Assembly (NCBI GenBank): GCA_025929635.1
Contig: JAICPX010000004.1
Span: 1-33,418 of the forward strand
Source: Chitinophagaceae bacterium
GTDB lineage: Bacteria; Bacteroidota; Bacteroidia; Chitinophagales; Chitinophagaceae
DNA length: 33,418 nt
Direction: 5' to 3'
The translations under genes and the position numbers were made by a program. Within the stretch, counting starts at the first letter, position 1. The number at the start of each line of letters is the position of its first letter. This document shows positions 16,681 through 26,779 of the stretch, one piece after another. A model generated the notes under the pieces. It did no database searches and was not told the origin of the DNA. It saw only the letters and a list, made by a program, of their open reading frames with translations.

Positions 16681-17526
16681 ATGTTTAAGAATATATTGTT
16701 ACCAGTTGATTTTGAAATAAACACTGAATTAGCCGTGAAAAAGGCAATTGAACTGTCAGATTCCGCTGAAACCACAGTTCATTTGTATCATGTTCAGAAA
16801 CCAGCTTTCCCATTTAGATCCATTTTTAAATCGATCTGGCCTGACAACAGTGTACTTAAGAATTTTGTAAAGGATGAACTTCATTATAAGCTTACGCAAT
16901 GGAAGGAATTGATCGAAACGAATTATCCGAATATCAAAGCAGTGGCAAGTATTGAACATTCGATTCATATCCAAAAGGCCATTATTCAAAAAGCAAAAGG
17001 AATAAAAGCTGACCTGATAATTATTGGTAAGCATTCGCATCACAAAACGTTCACATTTCAAAATACTGTTTCTCCAAATAAGATCGCCAAAAGTACCGGT
17101 TGCCCGGTATTAACCTTTAAGCCCGGTTCCGTATATACCACGATCAGATCAATAGTAGTGCCAATTGGACCCGTAATTCCTCAAAGAAAAGTTGAACTTA
17201 TTGTGGCATTAAAGCAAAAATTCAGGATCACCATCCATCTTGTAACGGTAATAAGCAAAAAGCAAAATGCTAGTGAGTTTTCGGCTTATTCGTTATTGGA
17301 AACTTATCGGTTCCTCAGGGATATCGTTCAATGCCCGCTCGATCATGAAGTGTTACACGGTGAAAATGTGGCGCAATTAACGTTCGACTATGCAAAAAGC
17401 ATTAAGGCCGACATGTTATTGGTCGAACCCGAATCCGAAACAAGGTTGTCTTCGTTTCCATCCAAGCATATAATAGATGAATTACGACCAAATTCAACAT
17501 TGCAGATACTTGCAGTGCAATCATAA
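16681..17526 (+). CDS. Tandem-domain universal stress protein
   Basis: MFKNILLPVDFEINTELAVKKAIELS...LIIIGKHSHHKTF; second half IRSIVVPIGPVIPQRK...DMLLVEPES. Confidence 0.85.
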   Translation: MFKNILLPVDFEINTELAVKKAIELSDSAETTVHLYHVQKPAFPFRSIFKSIWPDNSVLKNFVKDELHYKLTQWKELIETNYPNIKAVASIEHSIHIQKAIIQKAKGIKADLIIIGKHSHHKTFTFQNTVSPNKIAKSTGCPVLTFKPGSVYTTIRSIVVPIGPVIPQRKVELIVALKQKFRITIHLVTVISKKQNASEFSAYSLLETYRFLRDIVQCPLDHEVLHGENVAQLTFDYAKSIKADMLLVEPESETRLSSFPSKHIIDELRPNSTLQILAVQS

Positions 17527-20598: not shown

Positions 20599-20656
20599 CT
20601 TTAATTACATTTTAATGTCATCTTAATTCGGTCTTAATATGCGGGTGCTACTTTTA
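20599..20656 (+). promoter_or_regulatory. 11-bp direct-repeat promoter upstream of universal stress protein gene 2
   Basis: CTTTAATTACA TTTTAATGTCA TCTTAATTCGG TCTTAATATGC, then TACTTTTA at 20649-20656. Confidence 0.65.
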
Positions 20657-20668
20657 TCCTACGAATTT

Positions 20669-21544
20669 ATGGAAGGTAACTTTCGCAGGATATTGACCCT
20701 GATCGACTATACGGCTGCATCGTTGTATGCCGCCAGGGAAGCCGCGTTAATTGCTTCTAAGTTTGATAGTGACCTAAGTTTATTGCACGTATCTCCTGAT
20801 GAAAGATCAGGCAGTTTGATAACGCCGGGAGTTCCCTTTTTTGACGCGCCGGAAAAAGAGGAAGACGAGTACTATCTGAACGTGGATCAGTTGGAAAAGA
20901 TCAAAAGAGAGTTGAACCGGTGTTACAGTGTACCAATTACCTGTTTTGAGGAGCGGGGAAGCTTCTTTGATGTCGTAAAACAGCATGTCGCAGACTTGTC
21001 AATTGATTTAATTGTGCTGGGTACAATGAAGAGAAATTGGGTTAGAGATGTTTTTATTGAAAGTAAAGCCAGGTCAATAATCAAATCAGTCGGCCGTGAG
21101 GTCTTATGTGTTCAGCCTGCATCTAAAAAAGAAGCGCTAAGAAATATTGTGTTGCCGGTTGGTAAATCAGTGCCAAAGAAAAAGATAGGGATTGCTTATG
21201 AATTGGCAAAGAAATTTGCAGCGAAGATCCATCTTATTGCTTTGAATAAGCAGGATAATGCTTCTAACGACGAAAATACAAAAGCGCTGGTTGGTTCATA
21301 TCAATACCTGAAAAATGTCATAAATATTCCTATTGAATGTAACAAGGTAGACGGAAAAAGTCTCGCAGATGCAGCAATGCATTATGCTGAGCTTGTGGAG
21401 GCTGACCTGATCCTTATAGACGAAGGCTCAGAATCGGACTTAAAAATGCCTTTGTGGAGCGGCCATATTGTGAATCACTCGTCGGTGCCTGTACTGAGCG
21501 TACATGCTATGACCGGTGGTGAAAGGAAATTGTATAGAGCTTAA
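20669..21544 (+). CDS. Tandem-domain universal stress protein
   Basis: MEGNFRRILTLIDYTAASLYAAREAALIASKF...DLIVLGTMKRNW; second half LRNIVLPVGKSVPKKK. Start placed at 20669 because the listed 20639 ATG lies inside the putative promoter. Confidence 0.82.
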   Translation: MEGNFRRILTLIDYTAASLYAAREAALIASKFDSDLSLLHVSPDERSGSLITPGVPFFDAPEKEEDEYYLNVDQLEKIKRELNRCYSVPITCFEERGSFFDVVKQHVADLSIDLIVLGTMKRNWVRDVFIESKARSIIKSVGREVLCVQPASKKEALRNIVLPVGKSVPKKKIGIAYELAKKFAAKIHLIALNKQDNASNDENTKALVGSYQYLKNVINIPIECNKVDGKSLADAAMHYAELVEADLILIDEGSESDLKMPLWSGHIVNHSSVPVLSVHAMTGGERKLYRA

Positions 21545-21808: not shown

Positions 21809-23266
21809 ATGAAATTATCAATTCAATTCTTACTGGCCTTCTCGCTCGTTTTGCTGCTTTCAATTTTCGACACAGCATCTAATTATTTACTGTCACTAAA
21901 AGTTGAGCGAAATACGCAATTCCTCAACAATTCACAGGAGATCATCCGCCATTCGACGGCTTTGCATAAATCGATGATCGACATGCAAAGTTCTTTTCGC
22001 GGGTACCTGTTGACCAATGATGAGCAATTTTTAAAAGGATACGAAACGGGACTGCAAACAGTGCCGTCATTAGTAAACGGGCTAAAAGATCTCACCCGGT
22101 CAAATTCACCTCAAGTGCAGCTTATCGATACCATTGATAAATTGCATCATCAATGGCTTCATTATGCATCCAGTCTGATCAATGCCCGGCAAAATTTTGA
22201 TTCAAAAGAATCTGTTGAGCGATATACCATTTTGTTTGAGACCCAGCTGAAACAACAAATTGGGAAAAAAATAAATGACGATATTGCTATAAAGTTTGCT
22301 GAGTTTGATAAAATTGAATATACTACCCGCAGCGTGCATAGCGGTAATCTTGCTGCGTCCATAAAAGATACCCACTTTTTATCCGTGATCTTTTTTATTT
22401 CGACGATTATTATTGGAGTCAGCGCAGCGTTCTTTATTGTTTATCGGTTATCAACGCGTATAAAGACAATGGTATTACTTGCTGAGAACATTTCGGGCGG
22501 CCGCTTTACAACTCTACATGATAATAGCCACGACGAATTAAAAAGCTTATCCACATCGCTTAACAGGATGTCGGCAAGCTTGCAGAAGAATATTAGTGAA
22601 CTGGAGATCCGCAATGCAGAATTAGACAAATTTGCATATGCGGTTTCTCATGATTTGAAAGCTCCGGTAAGAGGAATCCATAATGTCGTAAATTGGACGG
22701 AGGAAGATCTTGGAAATGAACTGTCACCGGAATTGAGAAAAAATCTTGGAATTATCCGCGAAAGAGCAAAACGCATGGAAGATCTTATCAACGGGTTACT
22801 CGATTATGCCAGGGTAAGAAGGAAAACGGCCCCGCAGATCGTAAATGTGAATGAAATTGTTTACCAGATAGTTGACACCATTGTGCCAAGACATTTCGAA
22901 GTAGAAGTTCATGACCTCCCGATTATATTTACAGAGAAATTAAAATTGGAGCAGGTATTTGAAAATTTGATCAGTAATGCAGTCAAATATACACCAGGGA
23001 AAGACGGTAAAATAGTAATAAGTTGCAGGGAACATACGGATCATTATGAATTTTCGGTCAAGGATAATGGAATAGGAGTAGACCCTGAGTATCATTCCAG
23101 GATTTTTGAAATGTTCCAGACGTTACGGGAAAAGGATGAGAAGGAAAGTACAGGAATAGGACTTGCCATAATAAAGCGAATATTGGATGAGCAGAATTGC
23201 TCGATACGTGTTGTGTCTGCATTGAGACAAGGCGCAGAATTTATTTTTACATGGCCACGAAACTAA
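21809..23266 (+). CDS. CHASE3-domain sensor histidine kinase
   Basis: MQSSFRGYLLTNDEQFLKGYE CHASE3 signature; HAMP; AYAVSHDLKAPVRGI H-box; NAVKYTPG, DNGIGVDPEY, GIGLAIIKRI. Confidence 0.93.
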   Translation: MKLSIQFLLAFSLVLLLSIFDTASNYLLSLKVERNTQFLNNSQEIIRHSTALHKSMIDMQSSFRGYLLTNDEQFLKGYETGLQTVPSLVNGLKDLTRSNSPQVQLIDTIDKLHHQWLHYASSLINARQNFDSKESVERYTILFETQLKQQIGKKINDDIAIKFAEFDKIEYTTRSVHSGNLAASIKDTHFLSVIFFISTIIIGVSAAFFIVYRLSTRIKTMVLLAENISGGRFTTLHDNSHDELKSLSTSLNRMSASLQKNISELEIRNAELDKFAYAVSHDLKAPVRGIHNVVNWTEEDLGNELSPELRKNLGIIRERAKRMEDLINGLLDYARVRRKTAPQIVNVNEIVYQIVDTIVPRHFEVEVHDLPIIFTEKLKLEQVFENLISNAVKYTPGKDGKIVISCREHTDHYEFSVKDNGIGVDPEYHSRIFEMFQTLREKDEKESTGIGLAIIKRILDEQNCSIRVVSALRQGAEFIFTWPRN

Positions 23267-23273
23267 AATTGAA

Positions 23274-23705
23274 ATGAAAAGGAACACAATACTCTTGATC
23301 GAAGATGATGAATTAGACGTCATCAGCTTTAAGCGTGCATTAAAAAAATTAAATATTGAGCTCGATCTTGTTGTCGCTCACAATGGAAAGGAGGCCCTGA
23401 ATATTTTAAATGACCCGCAGCATCCGGTTTTGCCCGATGTCATCTTGCTTGACCTTAATATGCCCAAAATGAACGGCATTGAATTTCTGAGGATATTGCG
23501 TAGTGAAAAAAGGCACCACGAATTGAAAGTATTTGTGATGACCACGTCCTCTGAAACCGCTGACAGAATAACCAGCGAGGAATTAGGAATATCCGGCTAC
23601 CTGATTAAACCGTTGAGTTACACAGATAACACGAAGCGGGCTGATTCAATGGATTCATTTGTGCAATTTCATTTAACGAAGATTTTGAATAAGGAAGTTC
23701 ATTAG
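23274..23705 (+). CDS. Single-domain response regulator (Rcp1-like)
   Basis: TILLIEDDELDVISFKRALKK...PDVILLDLNMPKMNGIEFLRILR...KVFVMTTSS...GYLIKPL. Confidence 0.92.
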   Translation: MKRNTILLIEDDELDVISFKRALKKLNIELDLVVAHNGKEALNILNDPQHPVLPDVILLDLNMPKMNGIEFLRILRSEKRHHELKVFVMTTSSETADRITSEELGISGYLIKPLSYTDNTKRADSMDSFVQFHLTKILNKEVH

Positions 23706-23772: not shown

Positions 23773-24525
23773 CTATTCCAGGTGATAACGTCTTTTTAAC
23801 GAAGTAATTAACCCGCGGGCACTATGCAAGAGTATTTTTTGCAAACCGATCCTGTTTACCCAATCAAACTGCTTTAATCTGCAAAGGTTTGCGTATTGTT
23901 CAAAAACAGTTTTATCAGTCCGGTAAATTTTCAGACGTGTAGTGGGTTGAGGATCGACGAGTTTTATGCCGGCGCTGTCCGACGTATACCGGGGGATATA
24001 ATTAAGATCTAAAAACTGCACGAGGAACTTTCTCATCTCTTCCCCCAAATAGTTATTCATTTGCTCAACATATTTTAGATTATTCAAATCGTTATCATAT
24101 TCTGAAAACCTCCTGGTCAGCTCGCTATTATTGAAATAACGCAGGCTTCCTGAAAACTTCAACTGCTCTAAGGTAGAAGTAGTGGCTCCAAAAAATGGAG
24201 CGGCATAAGCGTAATTAGAAAGGGCATATATTCTCTTTATAGCCGAATCGGAATTCGTAAAATGTTGCAAAGCGGCAATCAGTGTATCCAGTTTCATGAT
24301 GCCAATTTGCATAAATTGAGTTCTGTTGCTTAATACAAGAGTGTCCTTGATAAGATCGTCGTATAAAAAAGTTGCATATTTTTTTCCCCGTTCATGCTCT
24401 ATGGTATGCTCTAGTTTATATTCTGCCAAAAATCCACAGAAGACAGCAAGGAATAACATGAGAAACTCCCAGAAATAATGCGTCCATTTTTTCCGGGCTG
24501 TATGTGAGTGGTGGTGTACTTCCAT
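23773..24525 (-). CDS. Tandem single-TM family protein, copy A
   Basis: MEVHHHSHTARKKWTHYFWEFLMLFLAVFCGFLAE; TLEQLKFSGSLRYF; C-terminal RRYHLE. Confidence 0.85.
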   Translation of the reverse strand: MEVHHHSHTARKKWTHYFWEFLMLFLAVFCGFLAEYKLEHTIEHERGKKYATFLYDDLIKDTLVLSNRTQFMQIGIMKLDTLIAALQHFTNSDSAIKRIYALSNYAYAAPFFGATTSTLEQLKFSGSLRYFNNSELTRRFSEYDNDLNNLKYVEQMNNYLGEEMRKFLVQFLDLNYIPRYTSDSAGIKLVDPQPTTRLKIYRTDKTVFEQYANLCRLKQFDWVNRIGLQKILLHSARGLITSLKRRYHLE

Positions 24526-24532
24526 AACTATT

Positions 24533-25273
24533 TTATTTCAGATGATAAGTCGTCTGAAGATATGTTAATAATTCTCCTGCAGATTGTCTCAGGTTAAGTA
24601 GCAAGGGGATCATTCCTTCACGGCTTCCATTCATTTGAACAGCATAAAACCCCAGTTGCTTTAACAATGCCGCATCATAACTAAGCAATGCAGTGTTTCC
24701 CGTAATCCTCGCCACTGAACCATCGGCCCTGATCTGTTTACGGTAGATTGCCGGGTCCATAATCCTGGATGCTACAGCTTTATAGGCTTCATTCTCTGAT
24801 TTAAAAATTTCTTCCACCATGCGTAGCTCCGGTAAATTGGCATAGTGATTCATGATGCGGTTCGATGTTTCAGGATTGCTGATCAGGCGGAAGCCACCAG
24901 AGTTTGTTAGTTGATCAAAAGTGCGGCTATTGTTTACAAGCGGCGCAATACGGTTTCCTATCCGTGAAGTATAGTAAATAGCCTCGCCGTTATTTTTTGC
25001 CAGGTCTGGTGAATCCATTAAAGTACTTAAAGAATCCAAAAAAACAATACTTTTCCTGAGGCTCACTATATGTTTCGTAATAATCAGTGTATCATCCTTC
25101 AGATCTGAAATAAGCGAACGGATAAACTGTTTTTCCCTGTCTCTTTCTATTTTATGTTCCAGTTGGTACTCTGCCAGGAATCCGCAGAACACAGCGAGGA
25201 ACAGCATCAGAAATTCCCAGAAATAGTGAGTCCATTTTTTTCTTGAAGTATGCGAATGGTGGTGTACTTCCAT
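24533..25273 (-). CDS. Tandem single-TM family protein, copy B
   Basis: MEVHHHSHTSRKKWTHYFWEFLMLFLAVFCGFLAE; TFDQLTNSGGFRLI; C-terminal TTYHLK. Confidence 0.85.
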   Translation of the reverse strand: MEVHHHSHTSRKKWTHYFWEFLMLFLAVFCGFLAEYQLEHKIERDREKQFIRSLISDLKDDTLIITKHIVSLRKSIVFLDSLSTLMDSPDLAKNNGEAIYYTSRIGNRIAPLVNNSRTFDQLTNSGGFRLISNPETSNRIMNHYANLPELRMVEEIFKSENEAYKAVASRIMDPAIYRKQIRADGSVARITGNTALLSYDAALLKQLGFYAVQMNGSREGMIPLLLNLRQSAGELLTYLQTTYHLK

Positions 25274-25282
25274 ATAGAATAT

Positions 25283-26014
25283 TTATTGAAAATGATACTT
25301 TGAATCAAAATATTTTATAATTCCATTGGTTTGATTTTGCATGCTGTTCATCCAGCGGCTTTGCCTGTAGATAACCTGCCTGTACCTGAACAAGACATTG
25401 AGAATGTTATTTACAGAATTCTTATCTGCAGAGATCAGGACGGGGATCCTACCGGAGTCAATTGAATCTGTATATAAGAACTTATTTGCTTCAAAATGGC
25501 CCAGCATATCGAAAACATTTCTAACGTTATCCTGGCTATGCTGCATGGCAGTACCTTCCCAATCCTGGTAATTACGGGTATACTTATCGTACGATATGAT
25601 ACTGTCCCGGTCCTCTTTATCCAGCAAGCGCAATCCTCCTGCATTTTTCAATTGTCCGAGTGTTCCGTCGGCAAAGGCAACGGTCAGGAAATATTGTGAT
25701 TGTTTTACCATTCGTGCAAGACAGGCCATATTGGTAGTGTTTTTGGTCAGTGAATCATAACAATGAAATATATCGTTTAATGGAGCTGTTTTTCGTTCAT
25801 TTTCTTCAAGAACCCTCGAGAAAGAAGTGAGGTTTATATGAAGATCATCATAAAAGGAACGGATATATTGCTTGCTCCGGTCTCTTTCCATCTTGTGCTC
25901 CAACTGGTACTCTGCCAAAAAACCACAGAACACGGCAAGGAACAACATGAGAAACTCCCAGAAATAATGCGTCCACTTTTTTCTTGATGTCTGTGAGTGA
26001 TGGTGTACTTCCAT
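25283..26014 (-). CDS. Tandem single-TM family protein, copy C
   Basis: MEVHHHSQTSRKKWTHYFWEFLMLFLAVFCGFLAE; TLGQLKNAGGLRLL; C-terminal SKYHFQ. Confidence 0.85.
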   Translation of the reverse strand: MEVHHHSQTSRKKWTHYFWEFLMLFLAVFCGFLAEYQLEHKMERDRSKQYIRSFYDDLHINLTSFSRVLEENERKTAPLNDIFHCYDSLTKNTTNMACLARMVKQSQYFLTVAFADGTLGQLKNAGGLRLLDKEDRDSIISYDKYTRNYQDWEGTAMQHSQDNVRNVFDMLGHFEANKFLYTDSIDSGRIPVLISADKNSVNNILNVLFRYRQVIYRQSRWMNSMQNQTNGIIKYFDSKYHFQ

Positions 26015-26020
26015 AAGAAA

Positions 26021-26779
26021 TTATTGAAGGTGGTATCCGTTATTAATGGCAGCATCCAGCTTAACTGCCATCGCGACCGCAGTTTTTACATTCATATTGA
26101 ACCACTCGACAGCCACTGCATATTGTTCACAAAGATTGACAAGTCGTTGAATTCTGGTTTTATCTGTAGAAAGAAAATAAGGCTGGACCGGAATTTGAAT
26201 ATCCTGATCCTGGTTGTTCAGACCCGCGTTCAAAAACTTCCTGAATACGGATGATTTAAAAATGTCGGTTCCCGTCTCATTCAGGGTTTTCCATTGAGGC
26301 AGGATGTACATATCCTGCATTTCGCCAACAAAATTTTTTACATACCCATCATACTCCATTATCAGATCAGAAACCTTTTTGTTCCTGATAAGCCTGAAAT
26401 TCCCTGAATTCTTTAGCTGGTCGATAGTGCGGTCGGTATAATTCCATTTATAAAAGTAATTCAGATATACAGATTGCCGGTAAATCTTCCCGGCGGATTC
26501 ACGCGGGAGCATATCATCCTGTAACAAAGGAATTAATGAATCAATATGCCTAATGACCTTTGAAAAAATTCCATGCATGAGATTTAATTTTGCGGTATCA
26601 GACCGGATATCGCTGAGCATGCTGCGCATAAATTCTTTCTCCCTTCTGTGCTCGATAAAATGCTCCCGTTGATTCTCCGCGAGGAATCCGCAGAACACAG
26701 CCAGGAACAACATTAAAAACTCCCAGAAGTAATGGGTCCATTTTTTTCTTGCTGTATGAGAATGAGCATGTACTTCCAT
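26021..26779 (-). CDS. Tandem single-TM family protein, copy D (first in operon)
   Basis: MEVHAHSHTARKKWTHYFWEFLMLFLAVFCGFLAE; TIDQLKNSGNFRLI; C-terminal NGYHLQ. Confidence 0.85.
   Translation of the reverse strand: MEVHAHSHTARKKWTHYFWEFLMLFLAVFCGFLAENQREHFIEHRREKEFMRSMLSDIRSDTAKLNLMHGIFSKVIRHIDSLIPLLQDDMLPRESAGKIYRQSVYLNYFYKWNYTDRTIDQLKNSGNFRLIRNKKVSDLIMEYDGYVKNFVGEMQDMYILPQWKTLNETGTDIFKSSVFRKFLNAGLNNQDQDIQIPVQPYFLSTDKTRIQRLVNLCEQYAVAVEWFNMNVKTAVAMAVKLDAAINNGYHLQ

What the first reader, a model, noticed from the sequence alone, without database searches (positions are those of the whole stretch)
23773..26779. Four tandem paralogs with near-invariant N-terminal TM module and highly diverged C-terminal domains
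Copies D-C-B-A are co-directional with 6-9 bp gaps. The first ~35 residues (MEVHHHSHTxRKKWTHYFWEFLMLFLAVFCGFLAE) are almost identical, whereas the remaining ~210 aa share little beyond T-x-x-QLKxSGxxR and a terminal YHLx/YHFQ. The conserved block carries many synonymous differences between copies (although A and C share an exact 32-bp stretch), which argues for protein-level constraint more than recent duplication. Likely topology (inference): His-rich cytoplasmic N-tail, one TM helix, extracytoplasmic coiled C-domain. A hetero-oligomeric membrane assembly with diversified sensor domains is a reasonable hypothesis; function unknown to me.
Basis: partly seen in the sequence, partly recalled or inferred. 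Interest (0 to 1): 0.7.

Follow-up and report, generated by a model that had tools for sequence, protein, structure and literature searches.

The report
Shuffling arrays of membrane-anchored variable proteins
The four genes belong to an undescribed family that soil and water bacteria (Bacteroidota) carry in long tandem arrays of up to about 57 copies; each copy has the same membrane anchor and a different outward-facing helical domain, the copies are reshuffled through the anchor sequence and sometimes traded between genera, and their job is unknown (perhaps protection against rivals' toxins).

Summary
The four ORFs share a near-invariant anchor (residues 1-46) and C-domains only 15-26% identical. 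The same genome has at least 22 copies, same-genus genomes 18-57, and a near-complete genome (G049) 29 copies in 51 kb on one contig. The family matches no Pfam or NCBIfam model, but profile comparison makes it a distant homologue of DUF6090 (E = 8e-16), which forms the same kind of array. AlphaFold2 (pLDDT 95.8 and 91.5) gives one fold for two strongly diverged copies: a 66-72-residue helix containing the TM segment, then a helical bundle. Charge bias puts the C-domain in the periplasm. C-domains are under purifying selection, so they are not hypervariable antigens. Gene order is scrambled; in 11 of 40 close pairs the anchor DNA is significantly more diverged than the C-domain DNA; paralogues with unrelated C-domains share excess exact anchor tracts; some cassettes are less diverged between genera than rpoB. 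The anchor therefore acts both as constrained protein and as a recombination block, as in Firmicute immunity-gene arrays. Arrays sit in islands of periplasmic amide hydrolases and amino-acid transporters, without pairing to particular hydrolases. Function (immunity-like binding, scavenging or sensing) is unproven.

The parts
26021..26779 (-). array gene 1 (5'-most; 252 aa): constant anchor plus variable helical C-domain; reciprocal best hit in same-genus genome G003 (L063:9311-10066, 54% in the C-domain)
25283..26014 (-). array gene 2 (243 aa); AlphaFold2 model pLDDT 91.5, same helix order as gene 3; no reciprocal hit above 40% in the C-domain in the sampled genus
24533..25273 (-). array gene 3 (246 aa); AlphaFold2 model pLDDT 95.8, helix 14-85 continuous from TM into the periplasm; reciprocal best hit L066:1425-2165 in G003 (62% in the C-domain, 68% overall)
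23773..24525 (-). array gene 4 (3'-most; 250 aa)
26642..26779 (-). constant anchor (residues 1-46) of gene 1: cytoplasmic HxHxH/RKKW tail, TM helix with E20, membrane-proximal ENxREH
25877..26014 (-). constant anchor of gene 2; nt 40-71 identical to gene 4
25136..25273 (-). constant anchor of gene 3
24388..24525 (-). constant anchor of gene 4; nt 40-71 identical to gene 2
26393..26428 (-). conserved T-x-x-QLKNSGxxR core motif (residues 118-129) of gene 1
25628..25663 (-). core motif of gene 2 (TLGQLKNAGGLR)
24887..24922 (-). core motif of gene 3 (TFDQLTNSGGFR)
24139..24174 (-). core motif of gene 4 (TLEQLKFSGSLR)

Best explanation
The four genes are a small block of a large tandem-array family of single-TM inner-membrane proteins. 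Each has a constant cytoplasmic tail plus TM helix and a variable periplasmic helical bundle. SHOWN by sequence: anchor and C-domain have separable histories, array order is scrambled, anchors carry shared exact tracts between paralogues with unrelated C-domains, some C-domain cassettes are less diverged between genera than the core gene rpoB, and each C-domain lineage is under purifying selection. INFERRED: homologous recombination and gene conversion at the anchor DNA shuffle the cassettes; genes 4-10 bp apart are co-expressed, so a cell displays many variants at once; the anchor docks all copies to a common membrane site or partner (invariant E20 in the TM); each bundle binds a different periplasmic ligand. 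The most likely role is a repertoire of immunity- or resistance-like binders against incoming periplasm-acting toxins or peptides, as in the Firmicute tandem immunity arrays it resembles in anatomy and evolution. Estimated probabilities: array anatomy about 0.95, anchor-mediated shuffling about 0.85, immunity-like role about 0.35.
For: Family size and array structure. One fold despite 15% C-domain identity, same helix order in both models. Topology. Purifying selection on C-domains (dN/dS 0.04-0.25 where dS is estimable). Scrambled order (5/147 upstream and 6/147 downstream neighbours orthologous). Anchor pS above C-domain pS in 30/40 close pairs, 11 at P<0.01 (e.g. 0.58 vs 0.07, P = 7e-7); breakpoint at codon ~45 in two pairs. 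Excess exact anchor tracts (>=32 nt: 32 vs 16 expected, 1/200 shuffles, in G003; 20 vs 11, 2/200, in G049; 76- and 69-nt matches between adjacent genes with 27-29% identical C-domains). L071:748 has an anchor swapped relative to its orthologue and nearly identical to its own neighbour's. Inter-genus transfer: C-domain pS 0.14-0.43 vs rpoB 0.59-0.71, while non-family island genes are 0.58-0.84. Precedent: TsaI, Lpl/TilA, EsaG, TipC arrays (PMC9484751; PMC10730906).
Against: No toxin, secretion gene or recombinase recurs beside the arrays, and PADLOC finds nothing convincing. The recurrent neighbours are periplasmic amide/peptide hydrolases and amino-acid transporters, which immunity alone does not explain. 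Many genomes carry 1-5 copies without a large array. Most genomes are MAGs. The exact-tract test is weak in G001 (53/200 and 12/200 shuffles) and not significant in G002.
Confidence: 0.5

Rival explanations
1. Scavenging module: the variable bundles capture different peptides or amide-linked natural products in the periplasm and hand them to the co-encoded hydrolases and amino-acid transporters.
For: Inside or beside arrays recur PF00144 serine hydrolases (12 genomes), amino-acid permeases (12), amidohydrolases (8 and 7), penicillin amidase (8), S9, M19, S58 and M20/M28 peptidases and DcuC/YfcC. In G049, 4 of 12 PF00144 genes lie in about 1.4% of the genome. The only strong DcuC hit in G049, G000 and G001 lies in or beside an array. 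Some neighbours overlap family genes by 4 bp.
Against: Family genes next to the same hydrolase are not orthologous between genomes (0 of about 64 pairs at >=45% identity for the hydrolase, transporter, TPR and DUF418 clusters), so no cassette is dedicated to a hydrolase. The window's own four-gene block has no hydrolase beside it.
Confidence: 0.25
2. Hetero-oligomeric sensor or scaffold: copies assemble through the constant TM module and sense different cues.
For: Invariant polar E20, G31 and E35 in or next to the TM helix; constant tail; class III adenylate cyclase-TPR genes recur in or next to arrays in 5 genomes.
Against: No output domain. Arrays of 30 genes with scrambled order do not suggest a defined complex. 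No oligomer was tested.
Confidence: 0.2
3. Surface-antigen or receptor-decoy diversification: a pool of variants selected to differ.
For: Extreme divergence between paralogues, copy-number variation, cassette shuffling.
Against: Strong purifying selection within C-domain lineages; inner-membrane, periplasmic topology predicted, not surface; no silent or expressed cassette arrangement.
Confidence: 0.05
4. Artefact of MAG misassembly or binning.
For: The window genome is a 705-contig assembly; contigs end inside arrays.
Against: 29 copies in 51 kb on one 2.7-Mb contig of a 10-contig genome; arrays in a 3-contig genome (G311) and in named isolates such as Lacibacter luteus, Algoriphagus and Aquiflexum.
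Confidence: 0.02

Closest known systems
DUF6090 (Pfam PF19578, Bacteroidota, function unknown)
   Same: Homologous by profile-profile comparison (E = 8e-16, 211 columns); same layout (basic N-tail, one TM, divergent C-domain); same tandem arrays, adjacent to or mixed with this family in Aquiflexum and Algoriphagus; one pair also shows anchor more diverged than C-domain (N pS 0.68 vs C pS 0.21).
   Different: Window proteins do not match PF19578 and only 3 of 100 relatives match it weakly (best E = 3e-4). Anchor sequence differs (RKIRQKLL...GEIFLVVIGILIALQINNWNE). No HxHxH tail and no YHLK end.
Tandem immunity-gene arrays of Firmicutes: TsaI/DUF443, Lpl-TilA/DUF576, EsaG, TipC (PMC9484751, PMC10730906)
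   Same: Tandem, non-identical paralogues in variable copy number; several are membrane-attached; recombination through a conserved block reported for EsaG, TipC and Lpl; TsaI conserves its N-terminal TM segment (about 75 aa) and varies in the rest.
   Different: No sequence match to those Pfam families; Gram-negative; single TM plus helical bundle; inter-genus exchange; no cognate toxin known; the recombination block is the N-terminal anchor (in TsaI little recombination was found).
rAID orphan-immunity arrays of Bacteroidales (PMC12247911)
   Same: Bacteroidota; arrays of many immunity-type genes without toxins.
   Different: rAID is recombinase-associated and the tested factors carry SUKH domains; here there is one family and no recurrent recombinase.

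Membership tests
DUF6090 (PF19578) | Score above Pfam gathering cut-off (23.5 bits) | tested here: not met
   No hit for the four window proteins; 3 of 100 relatives below E = 0.1, best 3e-4
DUF6090 superfamily (homology) | Significant profile-profile similarity over the C-domain, not only the TM | tested here: met
   hhalign probability 98.6, E = 8e-16, 211 aligned columns
Tandem immunity-gene arrays | Tandem strings of non-identical paralogues with variable copy number | tested here: met
Tandem immunity-gene arrays | Recombination between paralogues through a conserved block | tested here: met
Tandem immunity-gene arrays | Cognate toxin encoded with at least some arrays | tested here: inconclusive
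   No recurrent toxin or secretion gene among the neighbours; orphan arrays need none and no dedicated toxin search was made
Tandem immunity-gene arrays | Protein binds and neutralises a toxin | not testable with these tools
   needs bench work
TsaI (DUF443) / Lpl (DUF576) | Match to the Pfam family | tested here: not met
   No such Pfam hit for the window proteins or among the families listed for their relatives
rAID arrays | Associated recombinase gene | tested here: not met
   No recombinase among recurrent neighbours in 64 genomes
Known solved folds | Foldseek match to the PDB at E < 0.001 | tested here: not met
   Best E 0.087, to designed helical bundles

The most novel reading that the evidence does not exclude
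A Gram-negative repertoire system: a constant inner-membrane anchor gene segment serves as the exchange point through which Bacteroidota trade dozens of periplasmic recognition domains between neighbours in the array and between genera, giving each cell a horizontally updated set of protective or capture proteins. DUF6090 would be a second branch of the same system.
Probability: 0.35. Interest if true: 0.85.

Novelty: new variant of a known kind. Interest (0 to 1): 0.62.

Why it matters
It names an unannotated superfamily (this family plus DUF6090) that can take up tens of kilobases of a genome and is found in 88 of 297 sampled genomes of the window's family. It shows with sequence evidence that such arrays evolve by exchange at a conserved anchor segment and by transfer of single cassettes between genera, a pattern previously described for immunity genes in Firmicutes. 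If the bundles are immunity-type proteins, they give Bacteroidota a readable record of the toxins or peptides their neighbours use. If they are capture proteins, they define a new peptide-scavenging apparatus. Either way, the family is a concrete target whose function is directly testable.

Tried and rejected
Pfam, NCBIfam, PADLOC and PDB sequence searches: no convincing family. Weak YwiC and DUF1980 hits cover the TM region only. Plasmid and phage collections: no match. Foldseek against PDB: no E < 0.001. Recent duplication as the cause of anchor similarity: rejected by near-saturated pS. Pure protein constraint without recombination: rejected. Dedicated pairing of a cassette with a neighbouring hydrolase: rejected for the recurrent hydrolases. 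Metal-binding His tail as a general property: relatives lack it. No paper in the library mentions DUF6090. The reading that the anchor is constrained by docking to a partner could not be separated from other reasons for TM conservation.

Full report
WHAT IS THERE. Four minus-strand ORFs of 243-252 aa lie head to tail at 23773-26779 with gaps of 7, 9 and 6 bp. Residues 1-35 are almost identical and the rest is only 15-26% identical.

SCALE. The window's genome (4.84 Mb, 705 contigs) has at least 22 copies, 13 of them on one 20-kb contig. Same-genus genomes have 57, 44 and 18; two small ones (about 2 Mb) have none. Contigs often end inside arrays, so assembly could be doubted. G049, however, a 10-contig, 100%-complete genome, carries 29 copies within 51 kb of a 2.7-Mb contig. 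Named relatives include Lacibacter luteus, Limnovirga soli, Ferruginibacter, Formosa, Algoriphagus and Aquiflexum.

FAMILY. The window proteins have no Pfam or NCBIfam match, and 27 and 100 relatives give only weak ones. A 113-member alignment shows a constant anchor (residues 1-46, 74% mean identity) and a variable remainder (23%) with conserved D57/D61, D80, Y100, the T-x-x-QLKNSGxxR motif (118-129), and a C-terminal KEYHLK. In Aquiflexum and Algoriphagus the family lies in the same arrays as strings of DUF6090 proteins. The two are homologous by profile comparison (E = 8e-16 over 211 columns), and DUF6090 itself forms long arrays in other Bacteroidia (e.g. about 14 copies in 12.7 kb of G412).

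STRUCTURE. AlphaFold2 gives a confident model for copy 24533 (pLDDT 95.8, pTM 0.86) and, for copy 25283, whose C-domain is 15% identical to it, the same helix order (pLDDT 91.5). A single helix runs from the TM segment about 50 residues beyond it. The terminal helix (about 43 residues) has the length to run back to the membrane, which would place the conserved YHL end near the conserved ENxREH segment (inference from helix lengths). Confidence falls only in the tail and, in copy 25283, around residues 81-110 and 161-200, probably the distal tip. No solved fold matches at E < 0.001. The charge bias is N-in (+2.65 versus -0.96), so the bundle should be periplasmic.

EVOLUTION. (a) The closest relatives of a copy are in other genomes, not beside it: within-genome best C-domain identity is about 33% at the median, while reciprocal best hits between genomes reach 90%. 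C-domain dN/dS is 0.04-0.25 where dS can be estimated, so each variant is conserved. (b) Order is not kept: among 147 orthologue pairs in which both genes have an upstream array neighbour, those neighbours were orthologous in 5; for downstream neighbours it was 6 of 147. (c) Anchor and C-domain have different histories: in 40 close pairs (C-domain pS < 0.5) anchor pS is higher in 30, and in 11 with P < 0.01. Two pairs break at about codon 45. (d) Paralogues with unrelated C-domains share more long exact anchor tracts than a codon-shuffle null allows: at >=32 nt, 32 vs 16 in G003 (1 of 200 shuffles reaches it), 20 vs 11 in G049 (2/200), 12 vs 5 in G000 (3/200); not significant in G002 and weak in G001 (12/200). 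Adjacent genes share tracts of 76 and 69 nt. One gene, L071:748, ties these together: its C-domain has an orthologue at pS 0.34, its anchor differs from that orthologue at pS 0.95, and the anchor is 94% identical to that of its own neighbour. (e) Some C-domain cassettes are less diverged between genera than rpoB: pS 0.14-0.43 versus 0.59-0.71, whereas non-family genes of the same islands show 0.58-0.84. One such pair (L150:18192 and L154:12217, pS 0.30 against 0.60) lies in well-assembled genomes (10 and 3 contigs), so mis-binning is not a general explanation. The direct reading is that recombination and gene conversion at the anchor reshuffle cassettes, and single cassettes move between genera. 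DUF6090 shows one comparable pair (N pS 0.68, C pS 0.21).

SURROUNDINGS. Arrays lie in islands of exported amide and peptide hydrolases and amino-acid transporters: PF00144 serine hydrolases, penicillin amidase, amidohydrolases, S9, M19, S58, M20/M28, amino-acid permeases and DcuC/YfcC, plus DUF418 proteins and class III adenylate cyclase-TPR proteins. In G049, 4 of 12 PF00144 genes fall in the array region, about 1.4% of the genome (binomial P about 2e-5, my arithmetic). The family gene beside a given hydrolase differs between genomes (0 of about 64 pairs orthologous), so no cassette serves a particular enzyme. The window's own block has no such neighbour: a histidine kinase and response regulator converge on its 3' end and a glycosyltransferase-like gene lies upstream (names of these window genes rest on my reading of the sequences, not on a search).

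HOW IT MOST LIKELY WORKS. The shown facts describe a repertoire: one anchor, one fold, many stable and exchangeable domains, apparently co-expressed. The closest described systems in anatomy and evolution are Firmicute immunity arrays. TsaI keeps its first ~75 residues and varies in the rest, and EsaG, TipC and Lpl recombine through conserved blocks (PMC9484751; PMC10730906). By that analogy I favour immunity- or resistance-like binding in the periplasm (about 0.35). Capture of peptides for the neighbouring hydrolases (0.25) and sensing or scaffolding (0.2) remain open. No toxin was found and no binding was measured.

VERDICT. This is an undescribed branch of a DUF6090-type superfamily, arrayed and shuffled like known immunity-gene arrays but in a different protein, phylum and cell compartment. 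Function is open and directly testable.

Noticed in passing
L137:12293-18428; L143:12360-20714; L146:13585-18183: DUF6090-type genes form their own tandem strings, often with 4-bp overlaps, directly after copies of this family; PF19578 annotation exists but the array habit seems undescribed in the library searched.
   Followed up: partly
L056:5829-7526; L115:4706-5461; L060:9618-10163: An amidohydrolase, a peptidase and a DUF4440 protein begin with or contain a stray MEVH-type segment, apparently a remnant of the family's 5' end joined to another gene.
   Followed up: no
L103:3187-11627; L073:6286-9031: Copies with long acidic, low-complexity N-terminal extensions in front of an internal MEVHHH; the motif is kept although it is no longer terminal (or the true start is internal).
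   Followed up: no
G003:C111:12267-12494 versus L024:11348-12844: The DcuC/YfcC transporter that sits intact in the arrays of G000, G001 and G049 is reduced to a short fragment in G003.
   Followed up: no
L024:9335-11320; L062:10234-12195; L151:7206-9227; L065:6746-8674: Class III adenylate cyclase-TPR genes recur in or next to the arrays, usually on the opposite strand.
   Followed up: partly
window 16681-17526 and 20639-21544; 21809-23705: Two universal-stress-protein-like genes near a membrane histidine kinase plus receiver-only response regulator that converge on the array's 3' end.
   Followed up: no
L126 (JACMJL010000102.1): A member lies on a contig titled Clostridiaceae bacterium; probably a mis-binned Bacteroidota contig.
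   Followed up: no
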